A stretch of DNA of 64,000 nt, taken from NCBI GenBank assembly GCA_000310025.1, contig FN649757.1, positions 383,005 through 447,004 of the forward strand, in the 5' to 3' direction. Origin of the DNA: Ectocarpus siliculosus (Eukaryota > Sar > Phaeophyceae > Ectocarpales > Ectocarpaceae). Position 1 is the stretch's first letter; each line of letters begins with the position of its first letter. The position numbers and the translations under genes were made by a program. The notes beneath the pieces are model-generated. The model saw nothing but the letters and a program-made list of their open reading frames with translations, had not been told where the DNA came from and searched no databases. Below, piece by piece: positions 1,920-62,695 of this stretch.

Positions 1920-4900
1920 TCAAATGCCCGGACTCTTATAGCTAATTTCGTCCAACATAGCATGAGTAGTATCCAGCCAGTCTGCCACGGCAATTGCATC
2001 ATCCACGGCCTCCTGTGTGGTCCCGTCCACCTCTCTCAACTCCGGCGATGTCAAGCCAACATCCGGAAACTGGGCCACCACCCCAGAAACGACGTCCTCA
2101 CCACACCTCTCCACCTCATTGCTGAAGAGGTCAGTACCATGAATTCCTCGCTTGCTTGATTCACGGCGGTGGACATGTGAAGAAGACGGGCCCAATCGAG
2201 CTGTTGGGCTCGCTTGTAGCGCACGTTCATGGTTCCACTCCCACGAGCTAGTAGATGACATTGATTTGTCTCCGCTACTGCAAAGGGCATCCATGTTCGA
2301 GCTGGTAGCTTCCTCGGGAGTGACACCCGCCCACACGATATCGCTATGATGTTCCTCATCGACAACCGGCACACCCTCTTTCTTTAAGTGAGCCTGTTGG
2401 AAACTGGCATCGTTTCTAGAACAGTCGGGCGGGGTAGTGAAAGCGCTCAATCTTTCACTCGCGATGACGCCCGCAACCAACCTGCAGCAAACGTTCACGA
2501 ACCAGTGGGAGCCAACACGGCTAAGCGTTGAATTTGTGCGGTCCACAGTGGGACGGGATCGATTAGACACAGTGGAACGGGACGTGTTGGATATGACACG
2601 GAGGGCTACGCCACGGTCCTCGTCCAGCGCTCGGGAAAACAGTTGGCCGGCATTTGAGCGAACACGCAACCAGGAACAGAGTTACCTACAGCAATGGATT
2701 TGGCTCAGCTTCCGAGTTGAGCATTGGGCCCGGCATCCTATGTATTTCTTCATCGTTCCCTTGCCCTGGTCTGGGGGCCTTCCATATTTTATCGGGCGAA
2801 CGTTAGGACCCTCTCGGTTGTTTAGTTTAGTTTTCGTTTGTGACTGACTGTTGGATAGGTCATGGCTGCGGGAACTCATTTCGTTGCCTTTCTCGAAGGG
2901 TACAACAGAGGGGGTACTGCGCAGACGTCAAGCATTACATTAACAGCAACGGTCCACTGCATGAGTCTTGTATTTGTACATCAAAAACAAGGCTCGCAAT
3001 CCGTTCGTTCATCAATCGAGTAGGCGCATTTTTTCTGCGTTCGTGACCTTCGCATGCCCTCGGAGCGCTCCACTGTAGGAACCTAGCAAGTGTGTGCGGT
3101 GGGCTAAAACGTGGTTGTTAAAGCCACTAGTCCTTCGGCGGTTGAACACCAACTGTAACATTTCTTGCGTGTTGCTTACCAAAGGAGTACCAAGTATTCC
3201 ATTGATGACGGAATCATGTTGTCGATCGACAGCCGTACGGGGTGTTCTCCCACCAGAACCGAACCAAAACAGCCCCCCCGATCCAGTTTCCAGTGATGTG
3301 CGTATTTCTTAAAAGTGAAAACGTCGACACCCGACGAACACCAAAACAAACTATTCGATTCCACGGAAACCGTTGCCACCAAGAATGAGTGCGGCCCATT
3401 GCAAAAATTACGGAAGTAAACTTGTTCGGGTGATCGAGGACGAACAGGCGACGAAAAGGGCCGAACAACGCCATCGTTCAGTGTTGCACCTGTAGACCAG
3501 GTGATTATCGTTGTTCCTGAAACTTCCGAAGCACAACCCCATTTCAAAAACAAGTTAGCCGTTGTGCTGGGGGAAGCTAGGCAAACCGTTGTGCATGGGC
3601 CATAGCAGGATATCAATCCCCCACCCCACCTGCACTGGAAATGGTCGCAGAATGCAGCTAGCCCTTGCCACTCCTCCAAAGGCGGTGCTGGCAGAGACGC
3701 AGGGGGTCGAAACGGATTGTAGGCCTCCCGCAGTCGGTTGTACAGACCTCGAGCTCTGGAATCGTCCATCACTGCTAGGGCTGCCAGGGCAGCATGCACA
3801 AGGTGGCACCTTTACGCGGTCGGAGGTACGAGGATGACAGAGAAGAAGATGAGACTCCCTGTCGCATTGCATTCGGTCGCAGTACAACACACCATAGACG
3901 CACTTGTGCCGCGAACGCCATTAGTGATTGCTGGTCGTCCCGCAGAATCAATGGTGAACTCAATATGGAAGAGGCACTCAAATCTTGGCGTTGAAAAATG
4001 CAATCTTGTTTCATTCAGTCTTACTGCGAAGCATGTCCCAGACCTCGCCACGACCGCGAGTCGCAGCCAGGGTAGCAGTGTGGTGACGAGCACGATCGAC
4101 TCACCATTGTAACATGCAGCGACAAACGCCAGGGTAGCGCTCAAGGACCTCGACGCAATGCCCTAACTTCTCCACCATCCCAACAGCGTCCCCGTTCGCT
4201 GCCCTGTGAAATACCAGGTTCCTGTCGGATGCGGTAGGTGGTGTTGTAGCGATGGCGACACAAACATGCAGCCTGTGATGAGTTATCGTTGGGTGGTATT
4301 ACACGTTCTCCAGTACGCATTGGTCTCGTGCGGTAGTGGTGCTCATATCCCACGGAGCGTGAACCATCGCACGCAAATTACATGGGCAACCATCATGTTC
4401 TGACGTCGGGAGCATGTCAGGTCACTTACATCTCACTTACATGTTAATGAGGAAGCCGCCCATGCCCGTCCGAACGTTTGGTCTGCTTGCCATACAGGTG
4501 AAGGCCGGTCACGAGGGAAACAGGGAAACATCGCGAGAAGGGTATATATAAGCACGCGGCATCTCCATGCTTGTGCGATCGAGCGCTGAAATAGGGGTCA
4601 CTCAACAGATGAGCTGCAGAAAACGATGCCCTACGTCATCGAAGTACAGACCTCGCATGCCACTCGAAAACCACCAAGCAAGGTAAAAACTCACTCACCG
4701 ATCCACTGCTTCTTGTAGGTTTTCGAAGTCGAGCAGGCCAACTTTGAACCCAGTCACCATGGCATCTGACATCTCCTCCGCCCGGGGGGCGTTGCTGTGC
4801 GGGCTTGCACTGCCTATATCCTCTTCGTAGGGCCCATCATCGCTCGAGCAACTGCGAATCGCTCTCTTCTCGCAAGCTTCCGCGACGACAAGTTGCACGA

Positions 4901-7900
4901 ACGCCTCAAGTGACTGGGCAACAAACCGAAACACGTCCTCTTCGTTTGCAGCTGGGTTGATCTGGATCATCATGCGGAAGGGGGTGGAGGCGGAGCTCTC
5001 GTAAACACGCACGCCTACCGTATAGGTTGCCTCTGTGGTTAGCCAGTGTGATGCAAGTCGACTTGTAGACAACGAGGCAAGCATTGCGCCAAGCCTGATT
5101 CGCCTTGGAATGTCCATGAAGCCGCACGAAGCGTAAACGTTTCCGGTAACGATCACTGGTGTCATTATTGTCTTCACACGGACAAAACTCTGGCCTGTGC
5201 CGAGTGCGTCGTCGTATGCACTCTCTATCCCAAGTCATTTCAACAGAGAAGCTCAGCAACGGTCCGAAAGTTGACAACCTAGAACTCTACCCCACTAACG
5301 AGCAAGCAAGATGGTGCCGAAACAAGGAAAGAAGCGTACGTCGCGCAAACTCAAAAGCCGAGCGAATCAAACATACAAAATGAAGATATGTGGTATACAT
5401 TAGGGGTGCCACCACACATCCGTATATACTGTGTTGTGCGGGGGCCGTAGCGTGAATGTGGAGTGTTGCGGGTATTGAGTCAAGCCGTCCCGTATAGCTG
5501 CTGCAATCACACGTTCCGTGTACGCGCTTTGAACAGAAACCGCTGCGGCTCTAGTTCACGTCATCGTCGGGATGACTTGCAAATAGTGCTTGGCTCCATT
5601 TCCGAGCGTGCCTTGGATCGTTTAGTGGAGCATTGCGATGGTGTCTACTACGATCTCTCGCAGCTGCCATCACGGAGACGTGTTGGGTGCTGTCCCAGAT
5701 TGCGAGCACGTTGTCTTTCGAGGAAACTCAGTTTCGGCTATGCGGTACCGGACATACCTGTGGACGGTCTTGACGTCGAGCGAAAAAGTCGATATCCACA
5801 GCGTCTACATTTCCGCAGTACACCTTAACGGACTCCTTGTAGTGAACTATCTCCGGGAATCCCTGGTCAAAGAACACGCGCATATACGAGGGTTCGACCG
5901 GTACGCACGACTGACAAAAGAATAGAAGTAGTCAACAGGACGAGCATGATCTGGGAAGAAATAGCGCCGAATGTTGTTTCTCCGCTCAACGGCATGGAGG
6001 ATTACGGTAGAGATTGGCCAGGCTACACCGGGGTTCATCGCCGCGTCATTCTGGCGATGAATAACATGTCGCTACAGTTGGATGGCTCAAATGAATCGAG
6101 CACCTGATCGGTCTGAAGGAACCAGTGCCCGCAACAACCCGATTTTCGAGCTGCTGCTGTACGACCGCATCAACTCACTCCCGCGAGTACTAGATTCACA
6201 GACGTGCTGCTGGGATCATCTCGCCCACCATGACCTTAGAACGCCGAACATCCACCAAGGGTTTGGCGTCAGAGGTGGCTTGGCCCGTCGGGGAAGCTGC
6301 TGATCGGGTGCAGGACAGCGACAATCTCAAACTATGGAACGTCGGCCAAGCTTTCAGTCTGCTGCACGCGCCGAACCTTCCTGCCCCAAAACCCACCCAC
6401 AGCCATCACGCGCGCCTCACACGTATGCCGACCTAAATATCTGAGCATCTGGAGCATTGTGGGTCCAGTTCATACCCTGGTACCATTTCACGAACGACGG
6501 CGCGTCCGCGTGATTCATGCACAACACCAATACGACCGCAAACAATGGTCTTCGAGCAACTGCACTCGAACGTCTAAGCCCACCCACACCCACCCCAACG
6601 GCCCCGCGCAAACCTTAAGCCATGAATGGATGGGACTATCGACTCCTGTTGAATCGCGAGGGACCATATCGTGCTTGCGCCGCTGCGGGTTAGGCCCTCA
6701 TCGATGGATTGAGAACCCGCTGCTACTGTACTCGTAGAAACGTTTACAATCACGCGCCGCCTACAGAAGACAACACCACAATAGGAGTGGCCAACCAGGT
6801 TCGATAAGCTTCCCGCATGGCAAAATCTAGAGGTGCTTGGCTTTTCTCATACATTGGCGGTGTTAGCGTACAATCAGATCTTGGAATCGACCGTTCCTGT
6901 ATTTTCTCTCTTCGGGAAGATAGCGGCCGTTTCCTTCATACAACCTGGTTCGCCAGGCAGGGAAGGAAGCTCTATTATTTGCTGTACAGAAAAAAGGCAA
7001 CTACGCCACACTCACCGATGGCAGCGTGCCAGTTGACCCTTGTTCTATGGAAGCAATCAAAAAGGAGTCCGAAAGCTTGAGGTACTCTTCAAACGTCGCC
7101 TGAAGCACAAAGCGCAAACGAACATAGCGGAGAAACACGAGTGACGATATCCAGTGCCAGACCATTTTGAACTCTCGAGGGATCCTTGAGAACGGAAATG
7201 CTGGGGGTGGCGACGCGATCGGCGCTATCGACAGGAAAGAAGACATGATCTTTGTACGCAGGACACGGGGACGATTAAGGGTGCCGTGCGTCCCGCAGGA
7301 GTCGAGCTCACCGTGTCTCCCATGAAACCGTAGAAGTACCCCAGGATCGCCCACGCCCTGAATTGATGTTGACGCGAGGACGGGGGAGTAGATGGGCTGG
7401 CGGTTTTAGGGGTCGGACGGCAAGGACTATCTATCATATGCCATGCAAGATTCAACACAGTTTGGACTGAGGCTGAAGTTCTCCAAGTAATCAGAGTGTC
7501 AATGCCCAAAAGGGTGGCGAAAGATGTGTCCCATTCAGACTTTCCAAATATGTATCGGTCGGTATTGCCAACCTCGCTGTATGTGGAGGTCGATTATTGC
7601 AATCCCGGTACTGGGGTGTGGTATCCTGCGTGGAATACGGTACGAAGATTCGATTGCCTGTCCAGGTCAAAACGATTGCTCGAGACATATTTTGTGAAAC
7701 GATGTACGTCTACCATAAGAAAAAATATCATTATCCCCCCCCCCCCGACAGACACCACGCCATTCGTGCGACAGGATTCGCCGATGGGTCGCGGTAGTGA
7801 ATATCCTCGTGTTACAATCTGTCCGCGTACAACTAACTCACTCTGCCACCTCCGCATCCGCAGGGCCAGTATAGTCATCCAATGCATCTCTCGCCAGTCG

Positions 7901-9769
7901 GGAGTAGTTCGCGACCTTTCGCGACACATTGGGGAGGTGTTGCAGTTCGTGGGCGGCGTTTTGGCTGGCGTCCTCTGCCGTAGCTCGAAATTGGATTGGT
8001 CGGCAGCTACATGCAACTATCACAAGTGGTGGCTAGCAAAGATGAGCGCCCGCAATGCGCCGGGGAACGACGGTGCTTCCCCAGTACAGGGTAAGCCAAG
8101 AAAAGCACGCGGCTTTCTCACCGACTCAACAGGGCTGCCCTTCACGAGAGCCCCCATACCAACTGCACACCAAAACGTGCAACATGAGGGACCCGTCAAG
8201 AGATGATTTCCCGTGGTGATACCGTCCTCGGTGAAGATGGCGCCGAACTGGCCTTGGTCGGGGGAGTTGTGCCGAGCACCAGGCTGATGTTGGGCAGTGG
8301 AGCGCGCCATCATCCTCACCATCGCTCCACGGATATGACTTGTGGCAACATTCAAGCGCACAGGAACCGTGAATCAGGACTTTGACCGTAAGGTTAGGAG
8401 CCATCATCGCTCGGAAAGATCGATGCCCTCCTCGACAATACCTTGGCAACATACACGCGGAAAATATGGGGTACTCTCTAACTAGTGGGGCGCAGGTTCC
8501 CCTGGTTGTGTGTGTCATGAAAGTTTTATCCGCACCTTCGAGTGGTGAACGGCATGAAGCCAACGCAGCCGAAGAAGTCACTCAGAAATGTGTTCTCCTG
8601 CATACCCACAAGCCCGGTCGCCGGAGAAGCACTCAACTTCAACCTGGTACGGGAGAAAGCGCGTTTGGACGTGGTGAGATCGTGCTAAAAGCTCTCCCTC
8701 GATAGACACGTAAGACCTGGAAGCGTCCAGATGACCGTTTGTCCTCCTTCAGCTCATACCTGTGGCTTCGATATACCCCACGTCCAACACGTATTTGGAG
8801 GTGCTGATCGATGTTGAAGCGCTAATGTGGCTTGCACCAATGGGCAGGAATTTCAGCACGGCTTCATCTTCTATGTCCCGCACCCACGGTTTGTAGATAC
8901 TACTGTATAAGGGTTGGGATCGAAATTGGTACTTCGTATACGAGACAAGGAATGCAATGGTGCACGCACAGATCCTGTGACTCAAGCCGAACCTGACCGT
9001 TTGAGTTTCGATTGTAGCATACATGTAGTCCAAACAACCACCAACGGATACTAAAAGACGACTGACCTCTTCAAAGGCAGCATACGGCAGGCCAGGAGTG
9101 TGCCGGATGCCGAGAGGCGCAGCAAATCCGCCGTCTGCATTCCAGCGGGACCACGTGGACGGCGCTGGTGCTGGCGCCCAGGCTGAGGCTGATGCGGCTT
9201 CCGCTTTCTGTACGTGCATCGAACCCCAGCTCCTAGGCACCGGCTACACATTGCGTACACGAGAGCGGTCATCGCCTTGCGTCACCCTGGTGCACGTGAG
9301 GTGTAGCTATGGACAGCCGTTTGTGGGTAGGGCTCGTTTCACGCACACACACTGGGTGGGGCTCATTTCACGGAACCTTGAGGATCTCGCCCAGATCGGA
9401 TTCCTCAACCGATAGACTGCTGTGCATTCCCAACCCCTGCTTTGCGACAACACATGCACTTTTCGTGCCCAAAAGTGTTGGCCTTCCAACTGTAGTCTAC
9501 TGAAGTCCCGTGTGTGGATCACCTGTGTGAGTGGTAGGGATCATTCGGTTGATTCAAAACCGTTCAACATAAAAGATCGATTTGAGACGGAGCATCATCA
9601 ACGTCCGACGGCAACAACTGGCTACGGTTCCTGTCAAATACCACATCACACACCTGCAAGGCATCAGGCCATCGCACTTTCTTTTCTTTCGCCCACATGC
9701 ACAGCAGCTCTTGCGCATCCCAAGATTGTTCGTAGCCACGTTTCCGTCTTTCATGTAAACGGAACTCAT
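1920..9769 (-). CDS. Gene A: Zn(2)-Cys(6) fungal-type transcription factor, 12 exons, about 682 aa
   Basis: Exons, 5' to 3' on the minus strand: 9654-9769, 9067-9243, 8536-8643, 8122-8338, 7842-7915, 7312-7357, 7016-7099, 5758-5862, 4699-4961, 4105-4221, 3630-3809, 1920-2481. They total 2049 nt in one frame. Residues 22-48 form the zinc cluster C22-x2-C25-x6-C32-x5-C38-x2-C41-x6-C48, followed by the basic stretch RKRKPH, a likely nuclear-localisation signal. Exons 3-8 (about residues 98-308) look like a middle homology region. They include GLVGMQENTFLSDFFGCVGF, ALVKGSP, ANYSRLARDAL and AWAILGYFYGFMGDT. Exon 10 is TPR-like and exon 12 is a low-complexity acidic tail. The predicted role is a nuclear DNA-binding regulator with unknown targets. 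The frame stays open from the ATG back to an acceptor at 9801, so coding could begin in an upstream leader exon. Confidence 0.85.
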
Positions 9770-9800
9770 GGTCGAAGTCCCCACCTCGTGTCCCGTTTTC

Positions 9801-10165
9801 CTGCGTACATGGTGAACAGCGTTTTGTCAGCAGTTCGTGATTCAGTTGCAGCAGACATTGCAACGGTCGCTCAAGTGTATCTTAGGGTGATGCTTCAGGG
9901 TGTATGCCCAGTGGAGGAATAGTCTAGACCCCCAGCACAGTGTAACACCTCATAGCGAACGAAGAGTTGGGGGTGCGAGACGAGATAAATGTGCCGCCAA
10001 CTGGTGAAGCAGGCCCTGCGCTACAGCAGTAGGGTGCATGCGCATGTATGTAGATGTGAGCCACCCGAGATCCCGAGATATACTGTAGACTTCAACTGCT
10101 GTAGAAGCTCACTCGCGTTGTATCTACATACGCTTGGATTCAAAGAAGCAGCCGCATGGACTAAC
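9801..10165 (-). other. Putative leader intron of gene A
   Basis: Exon 1 of A begins after TACGCAG (acceptor at 9801-9803). A matching donor, CCTCAG followed by GTTAGTCC, ends at 10166. Gene C has the same pair: CACGCAG at 53604 and CCTCAG followed by GTTTGTCC at 53994. The shared arrangement supports a 5' leader intron of about 360-390 bp. I see no protein-coding signal inside it. Confidence 0.5.
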
Positions 10166-28440: not shown

Positions 28441-28485
28441 ACTGTTTCAATAGAAGAATCTAAGATAATTTTTTTTTTTTCGTTA

Positions 28486-33350: not shown

Positions 33351-33570
33351 ACCGTATATGACACAAGATAACACACTCCCTTGGCCGATTTTCAAAGCTC
33401 AATTTCTCAACAGCAGGAAGAGTCACAGCGCCGAAAACGACGGCGTTGGAACCGTCTCGTCGAGAGCTGTTCGAAAACGTATTGTTTCGTTTATGCATCC
33501 TCTTCGTCGTGTAGTTATCGAGCTTTGAAAATCGGTCCAGGGGGTGTGTTATCTTGTGTCATATACCGTA
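33351..33570. mobile_element. Small TIR element (MITE-like), about 220 bp
   Basis: The left end accgtatatgacacaagata...acacactccc..ggccgattttcaaagctc is repeated inverted at the right end (33520-33570), giving terminal inverted repeats of about 50 bp. The same terminal word (tatgacacaagataacacac) recurs at 33833 and, inverted, at about 33915 and 35455, so several related or nested copies occupy 33.3-35.5 kb. No coding capacity. Confidence 0.7.
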
Positions 33571-33829
33571 TGCACATATGCACATGCGACTTGAAACATA
33601 TTGCTCGGTTACCCCCTGTGCTGTGTACTCGTATATGCTGGGAACGCTACTACTGCTGTGCGCTCTTTCCCCCTCTCGTACCGCGCCCACACGTACACGC
33701 TCGCTCTACAGCCGCTCTGGCAGCTGCCGCGCCAACGCTCAGCTGATGCCAGTTGGCATGTATTGACACAAGGTTCAACATCAATCAGATCAGAACAGCT
33801 GTTCATGGGGTACGTTTTGTTTTTTCTTC

Positions 33830-46200: not shown

Positions 46201-49200
46201 AAAAAAAAAGAGAAGGTAAAAACAAAGCAGAAACCTGATTGCCGAGCTCACGAAGTGATCGCTTGTCATACAACGTCGTTGCCAAGCGACGGAAACCCGA
46301 CCCCGATGGCGAACACCGGGCGGGGGGGTGGTGCCGGGTGGAGCATACAGTACTACTAAGCCTTGGTGCACTGGACAGCACGATGATGTACATGGCCAAA
46401 GAGCATGGCTCGAACGAACCATTACCTGAGACAGCTCCGTGCCACGCAATATATACGACAAAATTACGCTCGGGTCACGGTGCTGAGCGCCCTCCTGGTG
46501 CAAAAAGTCCATGTCACTCACGTAGCCACCTCGGCATCCACAGGACCAGAGTAGGCGTCCAGTGCATCTCTCGCAAGTCGGGAGTAATTCGCGACCTATT
46601 GTGACAGTGGGGAGGTGTTGCAATTCGCGGGAGGGGTTTCAACTACTTTTGTCGTAGCTCGAAATTGCATCGGTCGGTAGCTGCACGCAGCAATCAGCGG
46701 TGGCACTCTGCAAGGGTGAGCACCTTCAATGTGACGAGGAACAACGGTGGTCCTCCTCGTACAAGGCAGGCAAAGAAAAATACCGCACTCCCTCACCGAC
46801 TCCACAGGGCTTCCCTTCACAAGAGCCCCCACACCAACTGCACACCAAAATGTGCAAGCCGAGGGGCCCGTCGATAGGTGATTTCCCGTGGTGATACCAT
46901 CATCGGTGAAGAGGGCGCCGAACTGGCCTTGATCGGGGGAGTCGTTCGAAGCGCCCGGCTGGTGTCGGGCAGCGGAGTGAGCCATCATCCTCACCATCGC
47001 TCCGCGGATTTGACTTGCGGCAACATTCAAGCGCACAGCAATCCTAGATCAGTCGATTGACTGTACGGGAGGGTACAAGCTTCCATCGCTCGGAAGGATC
47101 GATGCCCTCCCTCGACAATACGATAACAACATACGCACGGGACACGATGAGATACTTTTGGCGGCGGTGGGGTCAAGCTACTCCGCCTGTAGTAAACACC
47201 ATCAACACAGTACAGGCACCTTTGGGTGGTGAGCGGATAGAAGCCCACGCAGCCGAAGAAATCACTGAGGAATGCGTTCTCTCGCATGCCCACGAGACCA
47301 GTCGCCGGAGATGCACTTAACCTGAACCTGGTAGACGCGCGTTTGGACGTAGTAAGCTCGTGCAAAACGCTTTCGCTCTGTAGATGACACGCAACACTTC
47401 AGGGGCTCTTCAACGTCGAGAGCACTCCTTCAGCCCCTACATGTGGCTTCAATGTACCCCACGTCTAAGATGTGTTTGGGGGTGCTGCGCGACGGTGAAG
47501 CTCAATCTGTAGTGTGGCATACGCCGATCAATGCCAATGGGCAGCAATTTCAGCCCGGATTCGTTGTCGTCTTTCCTGCAACCGCGTTTCCTGGACAAAG
47601 ATACTGTGAGGCTCGGATGCCATGGCGTACGCACAATTTCTGTGACTCTAGCTAAAGCTGACCTGTTGCATTTCCGTCGTAGTCGAAACAAACCACAGCG
47701 GCTAGTAAAGACGACTGACCTCTTCAAAGGCAGCATACCGAAGGCCACGAGTTCCCCAGATGACGAGTGGCGTTGTAGAAACTCCGCTGACATAATGCCA
47801 GCAGGATCACGTGGATTGTGTTGGTGCAGGTGCTGAGGCTGAGGAAGATGCGGCTTCCGCTTGCTGTACGTGCATTGCACCCCAGATCCTAGGCACCGGC
47901 TATGAGTTAAAGGGCGAACATATCGAAAACGATCTTCAGCGAAGGTTGTGCGCGAGCGAAATTTTCGGAGACGTAAGCCGCACCTGCGACCTCTGGGGGA
48001 GGAATTTCGAACCTCTGAAACGTTTTACACCGTGTACAACTGAGATAGTTGTATTTGTGCGGCCAATCAACTAAAATCTAGGACTGTTGTGCAAAGAGTT
48101 GATTCCATTCAACCAAAGTCTCAGAATTTCGTCCAACTTGTTGATTCCAATCAACTCAAGTCCCAGAGTCTTGTCCAACTAGTTGATTCCGCTCAACTAC
48201 GGGTAGTTGAACCGTTGCACAACAAACTCAGTTAGTAATCAGCTATAGTTGTGCAGGGTGTGAAACGTTTCCATGAATCACAGAAAAAATAGGAGCCGTT
48301 CAGCGAGCATTGCGACCTTCCGACGTTCGTGTTCTGTTGATTAACGCGGCGATACACCACGCGGTAACCGGTTACCTGACGATGAACCTGTTTCTAGGTG
48401 GGAGCAAAGAGCTAGGCACGATAAACATTGATACGATATCCAAGCGTACACCTACAGAAAGAGAGTATTTTCGTTCGCATTTTTGAACATTTTGACAACG
48501 CTACCTCAAGAGTACCTTTGACGGACACCGGGCTACACTAAGCAGACCTCCCCACATTCCAGCAGGTCTTGTAACGAAGTCGTTTATGGGTATTTCTTTT
48601 CCTGTGTATAAGAGTAGTTTGGTTGCGATGAACGCTGCTCGCAGCCTACAACGGACTTGTTCCCGAAATGGTGTGCGCGGATGGTGTGTGCGCAAGTTAG
48701 CGCAAGCAAGCACGTACGAGCCATGTTTCTCTGATAGCCCGCGGCCAGACGGGCGACTTGCGGAAGATGATGAGCAGGATGCTCCATAAGTTTTATCGGG
48801 GTATTCATCAACGAAAAGCTTTCGAAGACAACGCTGGGGGTCACGGGGAGTACGCCACCTCTCTCCCTTACGACAAACTTAGCGAAGCAGCCTCCTCACC
48901 GAAAACGTTAAAAAAAAACGGTGATACCTGTCTAGATACGCCACCGCCTCGGCGTTTTTCGTTTTGTCTGATAGCGCGTGGAAAACTGACAAAGGATCAG
49001 CCTTTCCCAAGAGTGCCCGAAACTTACATGGTACATTGCACACCTAGGTGCACTTTTCTTATTTGGGGGAACGTTTAAGGGGGGAGGGAGGGTACGAGGT
49101 GACCACCCCCCGCCGAAACGCAAAACAATATACAAGTACTTTCTGACGCTATGAATTCATTGCTAATCTGTCTCAGACTCTTTTCTATGATAGAGATGGA

Positions 49201-52200
49201 TTCATTGCTAATCTGTCTCAGACTCTTTTTCTATGATAGAGATGGATTCTTTGTGTCATATTAAGAAAAATAAAAATGTATACTTGACAAAAATCCCTAC
49301 CATACCAATCCAGATTTAAAAAGGGCAACGTGTCTTGTTCTTTTTTTGTGCATCTGCGTGCCCCCTACAGCCATGTGCACGCGTTCGCGCTCGCCGCGAC
49401 TGTGCGCTGTACGGGGTACCGCACCTACATACAGACGACGAGAGGGAGATTGTGGTCAGAGCACCCTGTAGGCCTAGCCCAGGTCATTGCAGCGCAAGGC
49501 TATACCCAATTATGTTCTCGTTCAGAAGAATAGACTCGGAGTTCAGCGAAGAGGGGGACAGGGCGGTGAGAAAAAGGGAGGGAGGGTGCAACGGGGCAGA
49601 AGACAAGGGGAAAGGTATCAAGAGCAGGAGGGGGAGAGAAGAAGCAAGAGGGACCGGACGTACGATCGGGGGAACACCCAGAACCGGCGGATTGGTTGGC
49701 GTGGTTTCGCGTGCGAGAGAGAATGTCGGAAAGCTGTAGGCGGAACGAACGGTAGGCGAAAGAATGTTCATAACACTCTCATCTCAGCTAACTGCGAGCT
49801 CCTCCTAGATGACATATATTCCGCGGTTTCCGTCGAGCATAAGGGTTCTTCGTTCACTCGCACGCAGAGGCGCGTTGCTACTCCGGGCTATAATTTCACT
49901 GAAAATTGATTCGAGGATGGGTGTGGTGTGCATGATTTGGATGATTGTCGTGTGGTTTCTCCATCAGTAACACGTTCTCAGCGCAGGCATTCTAGTTCAC
50001 TGTGTTTCGTCTGTGTGCAACAGGAAAAATAGGTTTAACGCGTGCACTATTGAATGCAAACATACGATGAAAAAAAAAAAACATCGGGAAAAATAGAAAA
50101 ACAAACGAAACTAGGCCCTCCCGGGGGGAGTCTCTAGTCCATAGCTAGCGTGTATGGAGCAACATTTTCGGGCACCCTTGGCTTCTCCCTTTTTTGTTAG
50201 TCTGTTGCATACATCTACAACCACGAACTCTATTCACAAGCGGGGTGCAGCTCTTTGGCAGTGCTGCAAACAAGCCAATATCTATACCATCGTCCAACCA
50301 TCTGCCCATACAACTCCAGTGGGCGTACGCGTCTTGAAATATCTTGTGCGCACACCCTTGGTCACCACCTACTAGACTGTATGGTTGAAATTTAGATATT
50401 AATAGTGGGTGTTTGGCCGTGGTTTGAGAGGGTGTGTGTGAAGATGGATAGTGCGATACGGGTGGAACTCGCCCCCCAACCGCTGGTCTTGTCCAACAAG
50501 AAAACGGATTGTTCCGAGCCCAAGGTTTAACCCTCCTACAGTAGTACCCAGTCCCTCCGCGAAAAACAAAAGTCGCAAAAATGTTGGTCGTGGGGGCACT
50601 TTTTATCCTGAAGCCAAGTCAGCAAATGTTTCCAGTACCAGGCGACGTACAGCTTTACGACCTATAGTAGGGGACACGCGGCGTGGGAGATGGTGTGAAG
50701 CAAGTCAGAGGCGAGGAGAGCATATCCTACAGCGTACCACCTCAGCAAAGCATGATGGACAAAGCGTTCTCACGTGCGTTTCACCCCGCGGAGCCTAGGA
50801 TGACTACGGTGTGGAAAATGGGCAGTTTGAGTGTTGTGTCCCCAAAGTGTCCCCATTGGGCTTCCAGTCCTAGGAGGGTTACGTGGCTCTTGCCAACCGA
50901 TCTCGATTTCACTGATTTCGAACGCGACCGAGGAAGTACCCAGCAATCACACACAAGACATGTGAGACAAGGGGGCAAGTGTTGCGCAACAGAACATCCG
51001 GCAGTTGCCAACCAGGCCAGCGGACACCACGTAGTCTACCTCCACACACCTTCCTTGTCAAGCCAAGACAATAAATTCCACAGCTCGAAACTCAAGACAA
51101 ATCAGGCCACACGGCGGGTGCTCAAATCAGACAATTGCGGTGCGGAGCCCCCATCGTAGCGCGTATTCCAGGGGAGGATATCATGCGGCAGCGGCACCCG
51201 GGGAGTTGATTCTGTGACGGCACCTACATCAGTGAAACACGAATGGTAGGAAATAAGATTTGCGGACGTTTCTAACCGCGGCTTCAGCCTTCGATAGCGC
51301 GGTCCTAACAGCAGATCTGGCCGCGCCAACGCGCGCCCCGCTGCTCCATGATGCCGTTCTGGAATATTTGACCAGGTCAGGAATTCGCCCGCCGGCAGAC
51401 TGTTTTCGGTTTTGGGCTCGGCATATGCCACTGCTGTATTGAATTGTACTCTGGACTTCAGTAGATTATAATACTTCTACCACCGTAGAAACTGAGACCA
51501 CAGTTGGCAGGTTCCAACAGGTACAAGGCTGGTGTATCTCGTGGGCGATAGCTGTACATACATAGGCCAATATCGATTGTTTCCGAAATCGATCAATTTT
51601 CTTGAATCCCAAAAGGAGTAAAGGGGGAGCATCGGACTTCAACAGCAAGATGGCTCATGTCAATACTGCATACATGGCGTCCGGAGTGGGGTAAAGAGAG
51701 CACCGCGGCAGGGTGTGATGCAAGAACATGCAAAGAGGACAGATATGGATTGTAGAGTACGCACTGTTCGTTCCTTTCGCACTCCGCGTTTGCCTTTTTC
51801 TGATGCTGCGTCTCCTACCGCCGCGGATTCCAGGCCGGCAAACGACTTGAAATTCATGAGAGCCGTATTGTCGCCTAGGAAACGCACACACACACCCTCG
51901 TCACAGGCGGGCGGAGAAGAGGCGGTGTATTCGCGCGTTTAGCATTCAAACAGAATGTTGTAGGGCAGTGACCGTGCATCCAAAAGAAGCAAACTTACGT
52001 ACATACTCTGTACACGGATGGACGTATGTGAAGGTGGGACGGATCGAATGAATTCAGACATGAGCAGCGCGCGTGTGCGTGTTTTTCAAACATTCCAAGA
52101 AAGAAGGATACACGTAAGCACACACAGCCAAACCATCACGCAGTACATAATACTGTACGCGTACCTATTTGCACCCACCACAACCGACAATCTCCCACGC

Positions 52201-53573
52201 TACTGACAGTTTTGCTAAACCGCCCATGGAACACCCATGGGTGACCTATGGGCATGCCCATGGGCGGCCCGTGAAGTGCCCATCGTGGGCACTTCAATCT
52301 AGAACTTAGCCACCTTCACATCAACCTAGAGCTTAGCCACCAGCGACAACCTAGCTTGTATCGCGTGGGCTTGGGGTTAGGGTTAGGGTTAGCGTTGGGT
52401 TGTTAATCGTTATAGTGCCCGTTCCAAAGCAGATAATCTATTTTCTAGGAGTAAACTGGTTCGGTTCAAGGGCTCTCATGGGATTCCCGTGGGTTGTCCA
52501 TAGGCCGCCCATGGGCTGCCCACGGGCTACCCATGGGCCTAAAAAGGGGTGCCCATGGGCGCCCCATGGGTGACCCATGGGTGACCCATGGGAGTCCCAT
52601 GGGTCGTTTGGTAAAATAATAGAAAGTGTGGAAGACCCACCACCGACGGTGGGGAAACAAACCAAATCAAAAACAGACAGATGAACGGAATATTTCGAAA
52701 CGAACTCACGAACTCACGTCCGCAGCGACCGGGGTGCAGACCTATTTATCGTAACTATATGTTCTACGTTCATACAACGTCGTTCTATGTTCGGTCTCAC
52801 GTTCCGACTTTGTGCAAGCTGTGCTGCTGTGGGTCGTAGGACCACACACAGCGTTTGTTTGACTGTGCCTCACGAAGGGTGAGAGCCAGGGAGGAGGTGT
52901 AGCAATGCAATATGAACAGCCAAGAACAGATCAGCAGCTGTATACAAAAGCACAGCAGCAGCACAGCGGCACAAACGTGGGAGGCGATGGCAGCAGAAAA
53001 GAGAAAACCAACCAACAGCCGGTGGGTGTTGTTCTGAGTTGAAGAGAGGGCAAATGGTACCGACAGAAGAAGCGACTCGAGCCACAACGGCGTCCCACCC
53101 GATAGATTGCGACAATACTTGAATGGCCTACCCGCTTTACGCAGCGGTTCAGGCCTTTCGCGCGAGCGGGCGTTTTTTGTTGTGTTTCTCCAGCGTGCAG
53201 CAAAAGCGCAACCACGGAGTAGCAGACGTGCGTTTTCGAAGCTGCTGTATACGGATAGCTGTGACCAAGCAAGGTGTTCTTCGCTGTTCTACCCGCTACA
53301 GCTGTGCTAGAAAGAAAAAAATGTTGATACAGCTGCTTCAAAGAACATGAACGACTCAAGTAGAACAGTCGCCTGGAAACAGAAGGGAAAAGAACACCCG
53401 AACAGCCTCCACCGCTAACGACCAGCCAACACAGATGTATAACTATTCATACCACACCTGCAAGGCGCCAGGCCGTCGCACTTCCTCTTCTTTCGCCCGC
53501 ATTCACAGCAGCTCCTACGCATCCCAAGGTTGTTCGTAACCACGTTCCCCTCGTTCCGGTAACTGAAATCCAT
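37257..53573 (-). CDS. Gene C: Zn(2)-Cys(6) fungal-type transcription factor, 12 exons, about 680 aa
   Basis: Exons, 5' to 3': 53458-53573, 47720-47899, 47220-47327, 46797-47013, 46522-46595, 45520-45565, 45230-45313, 43815-43922, 42668-42930, 41890-42006, 40581-40760, 37257-37806. They total 2043 nt in frame. Residues 22-48 form C-x2-C-x6-C-x5-C-x2-C-x6-C, from SCCECGRKKRKCDGLAPC in exon 1 joined to SRCLGSGVQCTY in exon 2. The joining serine codon is split AG/C by the intron. Middle-region exons, TPR-like exon 10 and the acidic tail are as in A. The gene is twice as long as A because intron 1 (5.6 kb), intron 7 and intron 11 carry mobile DNA. The frame stays open upstream of the ATG to an acceptor at 53604, so the start could lie further upstream. 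Predicted nuclear DNA-binding regulator, targets unknown. Confidence 0.85.
37976..40286. mobile_element. About 2.3-kb insertion in intron 11 of gene C
   Basis: Intron 11 is 2774 bp in C but 820-1270 bp in A, B and D. Similarity to the D intron stops near 37976. Similarity to A and B (ccgcggaaa..cttgcaatcaag) resumes near 40287. Between them is a plus-strand frame (38197-38622, 141 codons) with a basic C-terminus rich in K, E and R, which I do not recognise. I cannot see terminal repeats with certainty, so the class is unknown. The element call is an inference from paralogue comparison. Confidence 0.5.
44867..45177 (-). mobile_element. tRNA-derived SINE in intron 7 of gene C
   Basis: Read on the minus strand, the element starts with a tRNA-like head (45104-45176) and continues through an unrelated body. 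It ends in A12 (T-run 44867-44878 on the plus strand). Pol III promoter boxes match consensus: A box TGGTCTAGTTGG (45158-45169) and B box GGTTCGAATCC (45115-45125). The equivalent intron of gene D (about 60440-60520) has the flanking sequence but no insertion. Target-site duplications are not clear (possibly a few bases, acat/cat). It ends 54 bp from the donor of exon 7. Confidence 0.75.
45104..45176 (-). pseudogene. tRNA-like SINE head (72-73 nt), not a functional tRNA
   Basis: The segment has tRNA length and a TAACC/GGTCA anticodon stem (one mismatch) around loop TTCTAGA, which would read anticodon CTA. The acceptor stem has two mismatches (GCCCAGG against CGTAGGC), the outer two pairs of the T stem do not form, and the D stem is poor. 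With the body and A-tail attached, this is the head of a SINE. The parent tRNA cannot be named from this copy. Confidence 0.65.
47905..49080. repeat. Intron 1 block of gene C shared with gene D
   Basis: Outside the inserted MITE, 47905-49080 is collinear with 62700-63620 and absent from A and B. Both copies hold an open minus-strand frame (48584-48844; 63149-63433) sharing LPQVARLAA and YQRNMARTCLLALTCA. On the plus strand both hold a frame sharing GIHQR and SEAA. Base differences fall at all codon positions, so I cannot decide whether either strand codes. It could be a nested small gene or conserved intron sequence. Confidence 0.4.
48027..48261. mobile_element. MITE, about 235 bp, in intron 1 of gene C
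   Basis: The 9-bp word gaaacgttt flanks the element on both sides (48018-48026 and 48262-48270). The termini are inverted repeats: acaccgtgtacaact on the left and the inverse acaccctgcacaact on the right. The interior carries a 42-bp direct repeat (gttgattccattcaac..., gttgattccaatcaac..., partial gttgattccgctcaac). The equivalent place in gene D (about 62822-62845) has a single caacggtttcatgaatcac with no insertion, an empty site. A 9-bp duplication fits Mutator-like elements. Confidence 0.8.
49155..49260. repeat. 45-bp tandem repeat within the CGAATCCATCTCTATC family
   Basis: Units 49155-49199 and 49200-49245 read attcattgctaatctgtctc...agactctttt(t)ctatgatagagatgg. A third partial unit starts attctttgtgtcat. 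It is the inverse orientation of the family seen at 28.5-29.6 kb and lies in intron 1 of gene C. Confidence 0.75.
49261..51675. other. Intron 1 of gene C: unassigned sequence
   Basis: A purine-rich stretch (49540-49740) produces long low-complexity frames rich in R, E, G and K (for example 49335-49739 and 49487-49909) that I treat as spurious. The rest holds no recognisable gene or repeat. Confidence 0.4.
52195..52670. mobile_element. CCCATGGG-palindrome-rich insertion
   Basis: This is absent from the other copy of the host repeat (junction equivalent near 27640). It contains two clusters of the palindrome CCCATGGG, often extended to GCCCATGGGC or ACCCATGGGT (52220-52270 and 52490-52610), roughly every 10-20 bp. 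It also has a perfect 10-bp hairpin (GAAGTGCCCA/TGGGCACTTC, 52273-52295) and the direct repeat ctagarcttagccacc. A short TTAGGG tract lies in the middle. There is no coding capacity. The clustered palindromes at each side suggest a foldback-type element. Confidence 0.6.
52374..52393. repeat. Interstitial telomere-like (TTAGGG) tract
   Basis: gggttagggttagggttag, about three units, is followed by a decayed unit (gcgttgggttg). TTAGGG is the telomere repeat reported for brown algae and many other eukaryotes. Three units inside a mobile insertion show neither a telomere nor a fusion. Confidence 0.6.
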
Positions 53574-53603
53574 GGTAGAAGTCTCTACCTCGTTTCCCGT
53601 TTC

Positions 53604-53993
53604 CTGCGTGCATGGTTAAAGCGTTGAGGTTTTCTCTTGTGCAGGGTAAGTGACGGCTCTGTCACGACGTTGCAACGGACGCGTAGCAAGTTTTAAAATG
53701 GCTGTCTGTGCCATCGATGGATCACGGTACCCACTCGTACGCACTATACGGCATCTTCGGACGACGCTGCAGGGTATGCCCCGTCGAGAATGCACATATC
53801 CCTAGTACAGCAATGTACTGCTGGGAGATGACGAAGCAAGAAGAGATATGCGAGCCTTTTCCAACCCATGAAGGAGGTCCTGCACGGCAGCCTGCGAAGT
53901 TCAACTGTCGTGTTGCTAGCGTGTAGTCCAGAGTACAGCAGCATGTTGCACAGAAAGTTTATGTCTATCAAAGAAGCAGACGCATGGACAAAC
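53604..53993 (-). other. Putative leader intron of gene C
   Basis: The acceptor CACGCAG ends at 53604 and the donor GTTTGTCC begins at 53993, matching the gene A arrangement. ORFs within it (53708-53926 and others) have no support. Confidence 0.45.
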
Positions 53994-55531: not shown

Positions 55532-58500
55532 TTACAGCGCCGGGTCAATTTGGTCAAATGCTCCCAACATAGCATGAGTAACATCTAGCCAGTCTGCTGC
55601 GGCAATTGTATCATCGCCTGTCTCCTCTGGGACCCCATCTACCTGTGTCAACTCCGGCAATCTCAAGGACATATCGGGAACTGGGGCCACCAAGCCGGCA
55701 AGCACTCCACCACCACACCCCTCGACCGCACCGCTGTAAATGTCAGTACCACTTCCTCCTCCCGTGTCCGGCCCACAGCAGTGGACATGTGAAGTGGACA
55801 AGCTCGGTCCGACAGGTGGACCCATTTGTGGTGCAGGCTCTTGGTTCAATTCCCACAAGCTAGTAGATGCCATTGGTTTGTCTCCGTTGCTGCAAGGCGC
55901 ATCCATGATCGAGCCGATCGCCTTCTCAGGAATGACACCCGCTGATATGATACTGCCATCATGTTCCTCGTCGACAACCTCCAGATAGTCCTCCGTGCAA
56001 TTAGTTTGCTGCTGGTCGGTATTGTTGCTAGTGCAGTCGGATGGGGCGGGGAAAAGGTTCCGAGCTCGACTCGCGATGATACCCTCAAAGCACCTGCAAA
56101 CAACGCATTGGTGATCCAGTAGGCGCCAGCACGGGCGAGGTTTGAATATTGTGTCAAAAAATGGGTTGCTTTTGAAACGGAGGGCCAGGCCGAGGTCCTC
56201 GCCCAGCGCTCGAGCACACGTTTCGCCACAGCTTGATCGAAAAACGTGTCGTCGAAAATGGTTACCACTCCGCTATTCTTAGTGTTACGACTCCGTTATC
56301 CTTAGTGCGTAGCTTCTGGAAGGCTCCTTTGTATTGATCTATTTATTGTGGCTCGTACCCTGCTCAGCTTGTGTTTTCAAGTGTCTCGTCGTGCATAGTA
56401 GGCCTCTCGCCCCTCTGGGTGCCCCATTTTTGCTTCTGTCTGTTCCTCACTTTCGGATCTAGGTTTTAAACACGGGCGCTCATTTCGCCGCATTCTAAGG
56501 GGAGGAGGAACGAGGAGGAACTGATCAGACGTCAAACATTGTCACTTCGGCATCAATAACGACGTTGCACTACTTGCACAACAAACGTTTAGGATATTAA
56601 GGTTGACTACAGGCGTCGTAGACCATGGCTTCTGAGTGCTTACAGGCACCTAGCATACACTCCCGAAAGCTGTCCTTGCCATCAGAATATGTGCACTTCC
56701 AAAAAAATCAACAGATAAAGTTGATCGAAGGCGAACAGGCATAACAAAACCAAATACCATCGTTCAATGTTGGCGCAGGAAATAGGGTGTCTAGGTTGAT
56801 AATACAAATCAGAGATATGAACTATGCTATCGCCTAAAAATGTTTTCGTGTCGGGGAAATGCTGAACAAACCGTTCTGCATGTGCCATGGCAAGACATCA
56901 ACCCCCCACGTACCTGCACTGGAAATCATCGCAGAACGAAGACGTCCCATGCCACTCTTCCAAAGGTGGTGCTGGCAGGAAGGAAGCGGGGCGAGAAGGA
57001 TTGTAGACATCCCGCAGCCGGTTGTAGAGTTCCCGAGCTCTGGAACTCTTAATTGCTGCTAGGGCTCCCAAGATAGAGTGCGAAGCGTGACACCTTTACA
57101 TGGCGGGAGGTACGAGGGCGGCAGAAAGACAGGAAGATGACTCTAATGTCGTATCGCATATAGTCTCAGTAGACGACACCTGTACCAAGAACGCCAGATA
57201 CATCTATGGTCGCTTCTGTAGAGGCAGGACGATTGTCGTGGCAGGAACATGCAGCACCAAATCTTCACATTGAAGAACAATACTGACTGTTTCAGGAGCA
57301 TTCTTCTTGGCATACAGATTCACGGCGCAGCTTACTTAGACCTTGCCACGGCCACCGATCGCAGGCAGAGGTTAAATGTCATGTTTGGTGATGTTCATAC
57401 GATTGGCTCACCATAGCATCATGCAGCGACACACGCCAGGGTACCGCTCAAATGCCTCGACGCAATGCCCTAACCTCTCCAACGCCCCACCCGCGTCGCC
57501 TTTCCCTGCCTTTTGAAATGCCAGGTACCTGCCAGATTCGGAATTAGTCATTGCAGAGATGGAGAAAACACGTTCAGCACAACGTGAGTCGTCATTGGAA
57601 TATCATACACCTTCTCCACAGCCTAGAACCATTCGTGTGATTGTGCAAAAAGGGAGGTACTCATAAGAGCCTACGGAGCCCCAGGAATCGCACGCAAAGA
57701 CCAAAGCATACGTGCGCGTTTTCCCCACAAGCGGGACCGTCTTCTCACGTTTACTCACATGTTAATGAGAAGGCCGCCGATGCCCTTGCGAATGTTTGAT
57801 CTGCTCATCATCCAGGTGAAAGCCGGTCATGAGGGGAAAAGGGAAACATCGGGAGACGGGTTCGTGTAGGCCTGCTTAAACTCCATGCTGACATGATCAT
57901 AGTGCGGATTGACGGATCGCCCAACAGAGGAGTTGTAGAAAACACGGTTCTACGTCATCAGGGATGCCGTAGGGGGCTCGCCATAATGAAGGTATTTGCC
58001 CGCCGAGGGCTATCCGCGCTAACCGGGCACCCGGCACTGTTCAGAGAATGAGACACCTTGAAGGTTCTACACATGTTCTACGATCTCACATGCCCTTTTA
58101 TTGAACCCCCTGTTGAATACACACGTCGCATGTACTTGAAAACTATCCTTGAAGGGAACTTGAAATTTGCTCACCGATCAACTGTTTCTTGTAGGTGTTC
58201 GAAGTCGATCAGGCCATCTTGGAGCCCCATCACCATAGCATCAGAGACATCTTCCGCCTGGGGGGCAGCGCCATGAGGGCTACCACCGCCTCTGTCTTCC
58301 TCCCAAGGCTCGTCATCGCTCAAATGACGGCGAATCGAACTCTTCTCGCAAGCTTTCTCGAAGACAAGTTCCTCGAACGCGTTAAGCGACTGGGAAAAAT
58401 AACGAAATAGATCCCCTTCGTTTGCAGCTGGGTTGACCTGCATCACAAGGAGCAGGTAGAGACGGTGGAGGGCAGGTCTCGCATTCATACACGATCGTAC

Positions 58501-61500: not shown

Positions 61501-62695
61501 ATGCACACAACTATCAACGGTGGCACCAAGCAGAGGATATGCGCCTACGCGACGTGGAACAACGGTAGGCCACCAAGCACAACACCTTCCTCTCACCGAT
61601 TCAACAGGGCTGCCCTTCACAAGTGCTCCCACACCAACTGCACACCAAAACGTGCAAGCCGAGGGGCCTGCCGACAGCTGATTTCCCGTGGTAATGCCAT
61701 CCTCGGAAAAGATGGCGCCGAACTGGCCTTGATCGAGGGAGTCGTACGAAGCGTCCGGCCGGTGTGGGGCAGTGGAGAGGGTCATCATCCTCACCATTTC
61801 TCCGCGGATGTGACTGGCGGCAACATTCAAGTGCACAGGAATCCTAGATCAGGCGCTTGACTGCACGGGAGGGTACGACCTTCCATCGGTGGGACAAAAC
61901 CCGGTGGCCCCCATCGTCAGTACATTGGCAACACACACGTGGGACCCGAGGATGCTTTTGGTGGCGATTAGGTCAGCTACTCCCCCTGTTGTGTGTACCA
62001 TCAACGTGATATCTGCACCTTGGGGTGGTGAGCGGCAAGAAACCAACGCAGCCGAAGAAGTCGCTGAGGAAGGTGTTTTCCTGCATGCCCACGAGACCAG
62101 TCGCCGGAGATGCACTCAACCTGAACCTGGTACAGTAGACGCGCGTTTGGACGTGGTGAGCTCGTGCAAAAGCTCTCGCCCGATATGACACGCAACAATT
62201 TGGGGGCTTTTCAACGTCAAGAGCACTCCTCCATCTCATACATGAGGCTGCGATGTACCCCACGTCTAACATGTGTTTGGAGGTACTGCGCGATGGTGAA
62301 GCTCACTCAGTGTGATATACGCCATTCAATGCCGATGGGCAGCAATTTCAGCCCGGATTCGTCGCTGCCTTTCCTGCAACCACGATACATTTAATCTGCT
62401 ACGACAAGGCTCGGACACAACGGCGGACACACTGGTTTCTGTGACTCTAGAAAAACAGGACTTGTTGCATTTCTGTTGTAGTCGAAACAAACCACCGTGG
62501 CTAGTAAAGACGACTGACCTCTTCAAAGGCAGCATGCCGCAGGCCAGGAGTGCGCCAGATGACGAGTGGCGCAGTAACTCCGTTGACTGCATGCCAACAG
62601 GACCACGTGGATTGTGTTGGTGCCGGTGCTGAGGCTGAGGCTGGCGCGGCTTCCGCTTGATGTAGGTGCATTGAACCCCAGATGCTAGGCACCGG
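55532..62695 (-). CDS. Gene D: Zn(2)-Cys(6) fungal-type transcription factor, exons 2-12 (5' end outside window)
   Basis: Exons, 5' to 3': 62519-62695, 62019-62126, 61597-61813, 61336-61409, 60811-60856, 60521-60604, 59273-59380, 58175-58437, 57412-57528, 56914-57093, 55532-56093. They hold 644 codons plus stop. Exon 2 starts with the second half of the zinc cluster (SRCLASGVQCTY). The first half (C-x2-C-x6-C-x5-C) is not found between 62696 and 64000, so exon 1 should lie to the right, as in C, where it is 5.6 kb upstream. All exon phases and the lengths of exons 3-7 and 9-11 equal those of the other copies, and there is no stop. Exon 10 encodes YLAFQKAGKGDAGGALERLG, a TPR-like helix pair. 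The tail ends DDTIAAADWLD. D shares the intron 1 block with C, which suggests they are the latest duplicates. Confidence 0.85.

What the first reader, a model, noticed from the sequence alone, without database searches (positions are those of the whole stretch)
1920..62695. Tandem array of four intact fungal-type Zn2Cys6 regulators in a probable heterokont alga
Four minus-strand genes in a row share 12 exons with identical phases, and all exons are open in all four. Exon lengths match exactly for exons 3-7 and 9-11 (108, 217, 74, 46, 84, 263, 117 and 180 nt). Differences in exons 2, 8 and 12 keep the frame. Zn2Cys6 regulators are best known from fungi, so a local expansion of large paralogues that stays intact despite heavy transposon load suggests retained, perhaps diversified, function.
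Basis: partly seen in the sequence, partly recalled or inferred. Interest (0 to 1): 0.8.

Follow-up and report, generated by a model that had tools for sequence, protein, structure and literature searches.

The report
Huge cluster of algal zinc-cluster regulators
The four neighbouring genes are real, intact genes for fungal-type zinc-cluster proteins that probably bind DNA, and they are a small part of a family of about forty such genes, most of them crowded into one stretch of what looks like a brown-alga genome.

Summary
Confirmed and enlarged. D's first exon lies outside the window. All splice sites are GT-AG, there are no stops, and the proteins are 668-696 aa. Joined exons 1 and 2 give a canonical Zn2Cys6 cluster, over Pfam's PF00172 cut-off in 4 of 4. 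Pairwise dN/dS is 0.43-0.54, at most 0.34 in exons 3-6, near 1 in the linker. A fifth copy, E, lies outside the window and lacks one zinc-site cysteine. Genome-wide, 44 loci match exon 4: 29 on this contig over 660 kb, and 33 of 44 show exons 1, 4 and 12 in order. The fungal resemblance stops at the zinc cluster: the roughly 400-aa body matches no Pfam family over its cut-off (no Fungal_trans) and no PDB chain below E 1. Zn2Cys6 proteins are already in print for Ectocarpus (24) and other algae. The cluster's size, the unknown body and the conversion-like patches did not come up in my searches. Function is inferred; no expression data were available.

The parts
1920..9769 (-). Gene A, 13 exons (9769-9654, 9243-9067, 8643-8536, 8338-8122, 7915-7842, 7357-7312, 7099-7016, 5862-5758, 4961-4699, 4482-4441, 4221-4105, 3809-3630, 2481-1920), 696 aa
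   Evidence: PF00172 26.2 bits vs cut-off 21
16589..25330 (-). Gene B, 13 exons (25330-25221, 23536-23366, 22971-22864, 22653-22437, 22261-22188, 21845-21800, 21575-21492, 20332-20225, 19673-19411, 19184-19143, 18922-18806, 18527-18348, 17075-16589), 668 aa
   Evidence: PF00172 36.1 bits
37257..53573 (-). Gene C, 13 exons (53573-53458, 47899-47720, 47327-47220, 47013-46797, 46595-46522, 45565-45520, 45313-45230, 43922-43815, 42930-42668, 42275-42234, 42006-41890, 40760-40581, 37806-37257), 694 aa
   Evidence: PF00172 31.6 bits
55532..64000 (-). Gene D, exons 2-13 in the window (62695-62519, 62126-62019, 61813-61597, 61409-61336, 60856-60811, 60604-60521, 59380-59273, 58437-58175, 57800-57759, 57528-57412, 57093-56914, 56093-55532); exon 1 outside at +65917-65811; 694 aa
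   Evidence: PF00172 30.5 bits
9654..9769 (-). Gene A exon 1: first half of the Zn2Cys6 cluster (Cys1-Cys4)
25221..25330 (-). Gene B exon 1: first half of the Zn2Cys6 cluster
53458..53573 (-). Gene C exon 1: first half of the Zn2Cys6 cluster
62519..62695 (-). Gene D exon 2: second half of the cluster (Cys5, Cys6) and the variable linker; same exon in A 9067-9243, B 23366-23536, C 47720-47899
57759..57800 (-).
61597..61813 (-). Gene D exon 4, conserved core of the family; its 72-aa peptide finds 45 places genome-wide; D and E are identical in the two 100-base windows 61820-61621
55532..56093 (-). Gene D exon 13, acidic C-terminal tail (last 60 aa: 11 acidic, 1 basic)
45819..46331 (.). Dispersed genome repeat inside intron 5 of gene C
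51680..53439 (.). Insertion in intron 1 of gene C, absent at that place in gene D; related stretch at 27095-28441; its part 52663-53439 is dispersed genome-wide

Best explanation
The window holds four intact members of a family of zinc-cluster transcription regulators in a heterokont, probably brown, alga. The family grew largely by tandem duplication into a cluster of about 29 loci on one contig. Each protein should grip DNA with an N-terminal Zn2Cys6 cluster, coded half by exon 1 and half by exon 2. Behind it lie a variable linker, a conserved body of about 400 aa of unknown fold (perhaps helical repeats, used for pairing or sensing a signal), and an acidic tail that would recruit the transcription machinery. 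Shown: gene structure, open frames, canonical cysteine spacing, constraint, copy number, near-identical patches between neighbours. Inferred: DNA binding, activation, the role of linker and body, and control of stress or metabolic genes.
For: 13-exon models with 24 of 24 GT-AG splice dinucleotides in each gene and no stops. PF00172 over cut-off in 4 of 4. The profile of A-D matches 14 PDB sequences at E<=1, the best being DNA-binding parts of LAC9 (0.00075), Pho7, C27B12.11c and PUT3, then GAL4; for these the match lies within residues 17-60. dN/dS 0.43-0.54 between A-D; pooled pN/pS over 7 copies 0.50 (0.43-0.56), with 0.15 in exon 3 and 0.14 in exon 6. 44 exon-4 loci, 39 with exon 12 downstream and 33 also with exon 1 upstream, on the same strand. 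20 of 21 further loci give open exons 3-12 with AG/GT borders (the script took only stop-free exons). Among the 25 bodies in the tree several contig neighbours pair up, D-E with C among them. D and E are identical in two 100-base windows over exon 4 and 73-98% alike in the other windows; D and C reach 97-98% over 60820-60621, almost all of it intron 6, against 62-92% in the other windows that align, which suggests gene conversion. First 75 aa basic (13-18 K/R), last 60 aa acidic (11-13 D/E against 1-4 K/R) in A-D. In Ectocarpus two Zn_clus genes whose names point to one scaffold and nearby places (Esi0071_0075, Esi0071_0081) rise under copper and oxidative stress (PMC4108028, table passage).
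Against: No transcript, protein or binding data. The body matches no known family, so nothing independent says that it serves transcription. The linker is near neutral (0.90, interval 0.61-1.37), which equals relaxed constraint as well as diversification. Some exons are near or over 1 in single pairs: exon 7 B-C 2.15 and B-D 1.66, exon 8 C-D 1.59 and B-D 1.08, exon 2 A-C 1.05, exon 1 A-B 0.97, exon 13 A-B 0.91. Copy E has lost Cys5 and locus L020 (C32:661k) looks broken, so not every copy is a working DNA-binder. A and B, though adjacent, do not pair in the tree: their fork is open. The link to the Ectocarpus genes is by domain name and gene names only.
Confidence: 0.72

Rival explanations
1. 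The cluster is mostly decaying: duplicates persist by chance and by gene conversion from a few working copies, so most of the array has no separate function.
For: E's damaged zinc site, L020's broken exons, unpaired exon matches (8 of 47 exon-12 and 8 of 43 exon-1 matches), near-neutral linker, conversion-like patches.
Against: All four window copies are fully open with dN/dS 0.43-0.54 at dS 0.31-0.47; 20 of 21 further loci are open through exons 3-12 (though the script accepted only stop-free exons).
Confidence: 0.12
2. The cluster is a fast-turning set of DNA-binding silencers aimed at transposons or giant-virus inserts, like the KRAB zinc-finger clusters of mammals in logic (recalled), not in descent.
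For: Large tandem family, variable region next to the DNA-binding domain, genome with dispersed repeats.
Against: The second zinc half is conserved (0.39), the variation is at most neutral, and the tail is acidic, which suits activation better than silencing. No target data.
Confidence: 0.07
3. The zinc cluster is kept for a role other than sequence-specific DNA binding, for example as a metal or redox sensor, and the body is the working part.
For: The body holds the most constrained exons (3-6); E keeps the body but not the full cluster; two Zn_clus genes in Ectocarpus answer to copper and oxidative stress (PMC4108028).
Against: Six cysteines at canonical spacing and the basic stretch between Cys2 and Cys3 are kept in 4 of 4; the second zinc half was found in 17 of 21 further loci.
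Confidence: 0.07

Closest known systems
Zn_clus proteins of Ectocarpus siliculosus (24 canonical proteins, PMC5611559; Esi0071_0075 and Esi0071_0081, PMC4108028)
   Same: Zn2Cys6 domain, brown alga; two of them bear neighbouring names on one scaffold
   Different: No body, exon structure, cluster size or conversion is described in the passages seen; relation to the present body not tested because no named Ectocarpus sequence was available
Fungal Zn2Cys6 regulators with the middle homology region (PF00172 + PF04082/PF11951; Gal4-like, the pairing of domains is recalled)
   Same: Six-cysteine cluster at C-x2-C-x6-C-x5-C-x2-C-x6-C, N-terminal place, acidic C-terminus
   Different: No Fungal_trans match; 13 conserved exons; the cluster is split between two exons; no coiled coil seen after the linker (by eye only)
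ZnCys of Nannochloropsis gaditana
   Same: Zn(II)2Cys6 regulator of a heterokont alga; lowering it doubled lipid productivity (PMC10859422, passages)
   Different: Spoken of as one gene; its sequence was not compared here
Fungal TRF (Zn-clus) genes of haptophytes, Nannochloropsis and Phaeodactylum (PMC4827209, passages; J50045 in PMC6779911, passages)
   Same: Same DNA-binding domain in algae
   Different: Clusters not mentioned in the passages seen

Membership tests
Zn2Cys6 binuclear cluster (PF00172) | C-x2-C-x6-C-x5-16-C-x2-C-x6-8-C motif | tested here: met
   4 of 4 window copies after joining exons 1 and 2; motif as given in PMC4827209; not met in copy E outside the window
Zn2Cys6 binuclear cluster (PF00172) | Profile score over Pfam's cut-off | tested here: met
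   26.2, 36.1, 31.6, 30.5 bits against 21
Zn2Cys6 binuclear cluster (PF00172) | Binds two zinc ions and CGG-type DNA half-sites | not testable with these tools
   needs binding assays; the half-site is recalled knowledge
Fungal_trans / MHR regulators (PF04082, PF11951) | Middle homology region by sequence | tested here: not met
   no match at E<=1 in 4 proteins nor at E<=10 in 7 bodies (exons 3-12) and one sub-piece; PF04082 0 matches in the genome, but exon-split and its controls did not ring
Fungal_trans / MHR regulators (PF04082, PF11951) | MHR-like fold in spite of lost sequence likeness | not tested
   fold prediction not run: spliced proteins are not given letter for letter by the DNA, as the tool requires
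One brown-algal Zn_clus family with the Ectocarpus genes | Shared body and exon structure | not testable with these tools
   no named Ectocarpus sequence at hand
Tandem family made by duplication | Same exon order, phases and lengths; neighbours most alike | tested here: met
   exon order and lengths; spacer between genes duplicated with D and E; neighbours pair in the tree for C-D-E and four other sets of the 25 rows, but not A with B

The most novel reading that the evidence does not exclude
A heterokont lineage joined the Zn2Cys6 DNA-binding cluster to a body domain unknown elsewhere and expanded it, largely inside one megacluster, into about forty regulators whose linkers drift freely while gene conversion keeps the core alike: a combinatorial regulator bank, similar in logic to KRAB zinc-finger clusters, that may read stress or mobile elements.
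Probability: 0.2. Interest if true: 0.72.

Novelty: new variant of a known kind. Interest (0 to 1): 0.47.

Why it matters
Zn2Cys6 regulators are often called fungal. Here is a large set, intact in the window and largely open in the other copies read, in a probable photosynthetic heterokont, with a body that Pfam does not know and a 660-kb cluster in which duplication and apparent gene conversion can be read copy by copy. If the genes are active, this is an unstudied control layer in a group with complex multicellularity. It also warns annotators: the zinc cluster is cut by an intron, so six-frame PF00172 searches miss it (none of the 12 genome-wide matches falls in the window).

Tried and rejected
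Four genes only: rejected. Twelve exons: rejected, a 42-nt exon in frame with AG/GT borders is conserved in 5 of 5 copies A-E.

Fungal contamination: rejected. The copies lie on a 932-kb contig of a 189-Mb genome that is rich in EsV-1-7 motifs, and repeats that occur on many other contigs sit in gene C's introns.

Fungal_trans body: not found. The best Pfam match of the body is a marginal TPR_8 (E 0.025 and 0.18, in 2 of 8 queries), with one CxC6 and one viral match, all below cut-off. PDB search with the body profile gave 2 chains at E 1 and 3.5, taken as chance.

Exon-1 swap in gene B: considered because B's exon 1 has high dS against C and D (0.97 and 1.12), but its DNA is 82% like A's exon-1 region, so dropped. 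The 27.1-28.4 kb stretch upstream of B that resembles part of C's intron 1 belongs to an insertion found elsewhere in the genome, not to a lost exon 1.

Relatives in viral contigs: none (two peptide patterns, 96 pattern matches, 0 confirmed). The prokaryote collection was not searched. Pfam on 10 of the 33 window ORFs of 150 aa or more: no match at E<=0.01, so transposon genes were not shown directly; the repeat load rests on two searched stretches.

Structure prediction was not run, because its stated rule accepts only proteins that the DNA gives letter for letter and these are spliced.

Full report
WHAT IS THERE. Self-comparison of the window shows four related stretches. Peptide scans and splice borders give four minus-strand genes, A to D, each with 13 exons, all GT-AG, all in frame, 696, 668, 694 and 694 aa. 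One 42-nt exon was missed, between the 263- and the 117-nt exon, and D's exon 1 lies 1.8-1.9 kb beyond the window. The structure is not chance: 24 of 24 splice dinucleotides fit in each gene, while sliding the exon set by 1-300 nt gives at best 8 of 24; 3 of 2,400 slid sets are free of stops.

THE ZINC CLUSTER. Exon 1 codes Cys1-Cys4 and ends inside a codon; exon 2 starts with the rest of that codon, then Arg-Cys5, and codes Cys6. Joined, the four proteins score 26.2, 36.1, 31.6 and 30.5 bits against PF00172 (cut-off 21). A profile of the four matches 14 distinct PDB sequences at E<=1; the best are the DNA-binding parts of LAC9 (E 0.00075), Pho7 (0.0027), C27B12.11c (0.0033) and PUT3 (0.0037), then GAL4, within residues 17-60.

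THE BODY. Behind a Q/H/P-rich linker come about 400 aa with nearly invariant patches. No Pfam family other than Zn_clus and one chance match (BRINP, E 0.84, A) appears at E<=1 in the four full proteins. At E<=10, of seven bodies (exons 3-12 of D and six other copies) and one sub-piece, only a marginal TPR_8 twice, one CxC6 and one viral match appear, all below cut-off. The body profile finds 2 PDB chains, at E 1 and 3.5. Fungal_trans is therefore tested and not met by sequence. The last 60 aa hold 11-13 acidic and 1-4 basic residues in A-D.

CONSTRAINT. Between A-D, dN/dS (Nei-Gojobori) is 0.43-0.54. By exon and pair: exon 3 0.05-0.19, exon 4 0.20-0.34, exon 5 0.07-0.19, exon 6 0 (C-D undefined, no synonymous change), exon 2 0.69-1.05, exon 13 0.52-0.91, exon 1 0.32-0.48 but 0.97 for A-B. 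Values over 1 occur in short exons for some pairs: exon 7 B-C 2.15 and B-D 1.66, exon 8 C-D 1.59 and B-D 1.08, exon 2 A-C 1.05. Pooled over seven copies (A-D and three neighbours; E left out for its damaged cluster; exons 1 and 13 not included): second zinc half 0.39 (0.17-0.73), linker 0.90 (0.61-1.37), exons 3-6 0.14-0.34, exons 7-12 0.50-0.69, all 0.50 (0.43-0.56).

BEYOND THE WINDOW. A fifth copy E spans about +68,390 to +87,680. Its exon 2 has lost the stretch with Cys5, next to a small duplication, so its zinc cluster is not canonical, unless the assembly is wrong there. The spacer between C's exon 1 and D's end reappears between D's exon 1 and E's end, as expected from tandem duplication of gene plus spacer. 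A whole-protein search gave 71 exon matches (64 of 382 candidates scored). D's exon-4 peptide matches 45 places (53 candidates, all scored, E<=0.01), exon 12 matches 47 (52 scored) and exon 1 matches 43 at E<=10 (43 scored), two of which (C21, C347) overlap other Zn_clus matches. Merged, there are 44 exon-4 loci, some short or weak: 29 on contig C32 (18,965-678,155) and 15 on C34 (6), C11 (3), C16 (2), C30 (2), C3 and C116. 39 of 44 have exon 12 downstream and 33 of 44 also exon 1 upstream on the same strand within 16 kb with no other exon 4 between; at such distances a few pairings may be wrong. Eight of 47 exon-12 matches stay unpaired, one of them (C32:515936) only because a weaker match nearby took its place, and one (C11:4086k) lies in a locus with exons 9 and 13 but no exon-4 match. 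Eight of 43 exon-1 matches stay unpaired, C21 and C347 among them.

FURTHER COPIES. 21 more loci were read (20, L005). 20 of 21 gave all of exons 3-12 open with AG/GT borders; L020 did not (a stop in exon 11, poor exons 5 and 9). The modelling script accepted only stop-free exons, so weak exons (5, 8, 9 in distant copies) may be flattered. The second zinc half was found in 17 of 21 and a first half inside the fetched stretch in 5 of 21; many others have an exon-1 match further upstream. A tree of 25 bodies (exons 2-12 or 3-12; L020 left out; 19 or more loci not fetched) has two large supported groups, C32:273-603k with C11 (13 rows, A-E among them), and C32:19-225k with C116, C16 and C34 (10 rows); C30 and C32:678k stand apart with weak support (81/72), and the row L021 is long. 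Among the rows sampled, contig neighbours pair up for D-E then C, 159k-176k, 19k-54k, 273k-319k and 478k-510k; A and B stay unresolved, and 225k goes with C116.

PATCHES OF LIKENESS. D and E are identical over 61,820-61,621 (exon 4) and 73-98% alike in the other 100-base windows. D and C reach 97-98% over 60,820-60,621, of which all but 10 bases are intron 6, against 62-92% in the other windows that align (one does not). Such patches suggest gene conversion; constraint on the protein would not keep the intron alike.

THE GENOME. 189.5 Mb in 492 contigs. EsV-1-7 motifs (PF19114) match 150 times over cut-off, 150 of 880 candidates scored; that this family is much expanded in brown algae is recalled knowledge. 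The lineage stays an inference. Two stretches in C's introns are dispersed repeats (52 matches, 40 of 2,283 candidates scored; 44 matches, 40 of 59 scored).

LITERATURE. Passages seen: PMC5611559 reports 24 canonical Cys6Zn2 proteins in Ectocarpus. PMC4108028, Table 1, lists Zn_clus genes Esi0071_0075 and Esi0071_0081 with log2 ratios at 4 h of 3.1 and 1.4 under copper, class Cu_Oxi_up. PMC4827209 describes 'Fungal TRF' genes in haptophytes, Nannochloropsis and Phaeodactylum. PMC6779911 names J50045 with PF00172. PMC10859422 reviews ZnCys of Nannochloropsis. Judged by the listings, no paper on a cluster of these genes or on their body came up in searches; the other listed papers were not opened, one search listed 15 of 63, and most subscription papers are not held. 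The 2010 survey by Rayko and others and the 2017 ZnCys paper were not read.

MECHANISM. Shown: gene structure, frame, cysteine spacing, constraint, number, patches. From knowledge of the domain (recalled): such clusters bind CGG-type triplets and the linker helps to set half-site spacing. Inferred: A-D bind related triplets with spacing set by their drifting linkers, pair or sense through the body, and activate through the acidic tail. Copper or oxidative stress is a lead from Ectocarpus, not a result.

VERDICT. Observation confirmed and much enlarged; interpretation right for the zinc cluster, unproven for function, and too narrow in number. Interest 0.47: the domain in algae is known; the size of the cluster and the unknown body are not, as far as the searches go.

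Noticed in passing
L002, about window +78,877 to +79,100 (copy E, exon 2): The zinc cluster of the fifth copy has lost Cys5, next to a small local duplication, while the rest of the gene is open: a natural variant without a canonical cluster, or an assembly error.
   Followed up: partly
G000:C32:557765-564823 and C32:635334-642014: Two loci give the same scores for exons 4 and 12 about 77 kb apart: a recent segmental duplication or an assembly duplicate.
   Followed up: no
G000:C347:1867-1968 and C368:459173-459274: The two strongest six-frame Zn_clus matches lie elsewhere in open frames of 571 and 194 aa: other Zn2Cys6 genes or foreign DNA.
   Followed up: no
33346-33574 and 34474-35136: Inverted repeats (a palindrome of about 229 bases, 74%; arms of about 287 bases, 81%) between genes B and C, perhaps small mobile elements.
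   Followed up: no
27095-28441 and 51680-53439: A related stretch of about 1.3-1.8 kb occurs upstream of B and as an insertion in C's intron 1; part of it matches many contigs; the ORF at 27058-27654 has no Pfam match.
   Followed up: partly
9649-9823 against 53453-53625: Exon 1 with its near surroundings is the best conserved DNA between A and C (83%), reaching upstream of the start codon.
   Followed up: no
G000 as a whole: EsV-1-7 cysteine motifs are very many, often several in one frame (150 scored of 880 candidates).
   Followed up: no
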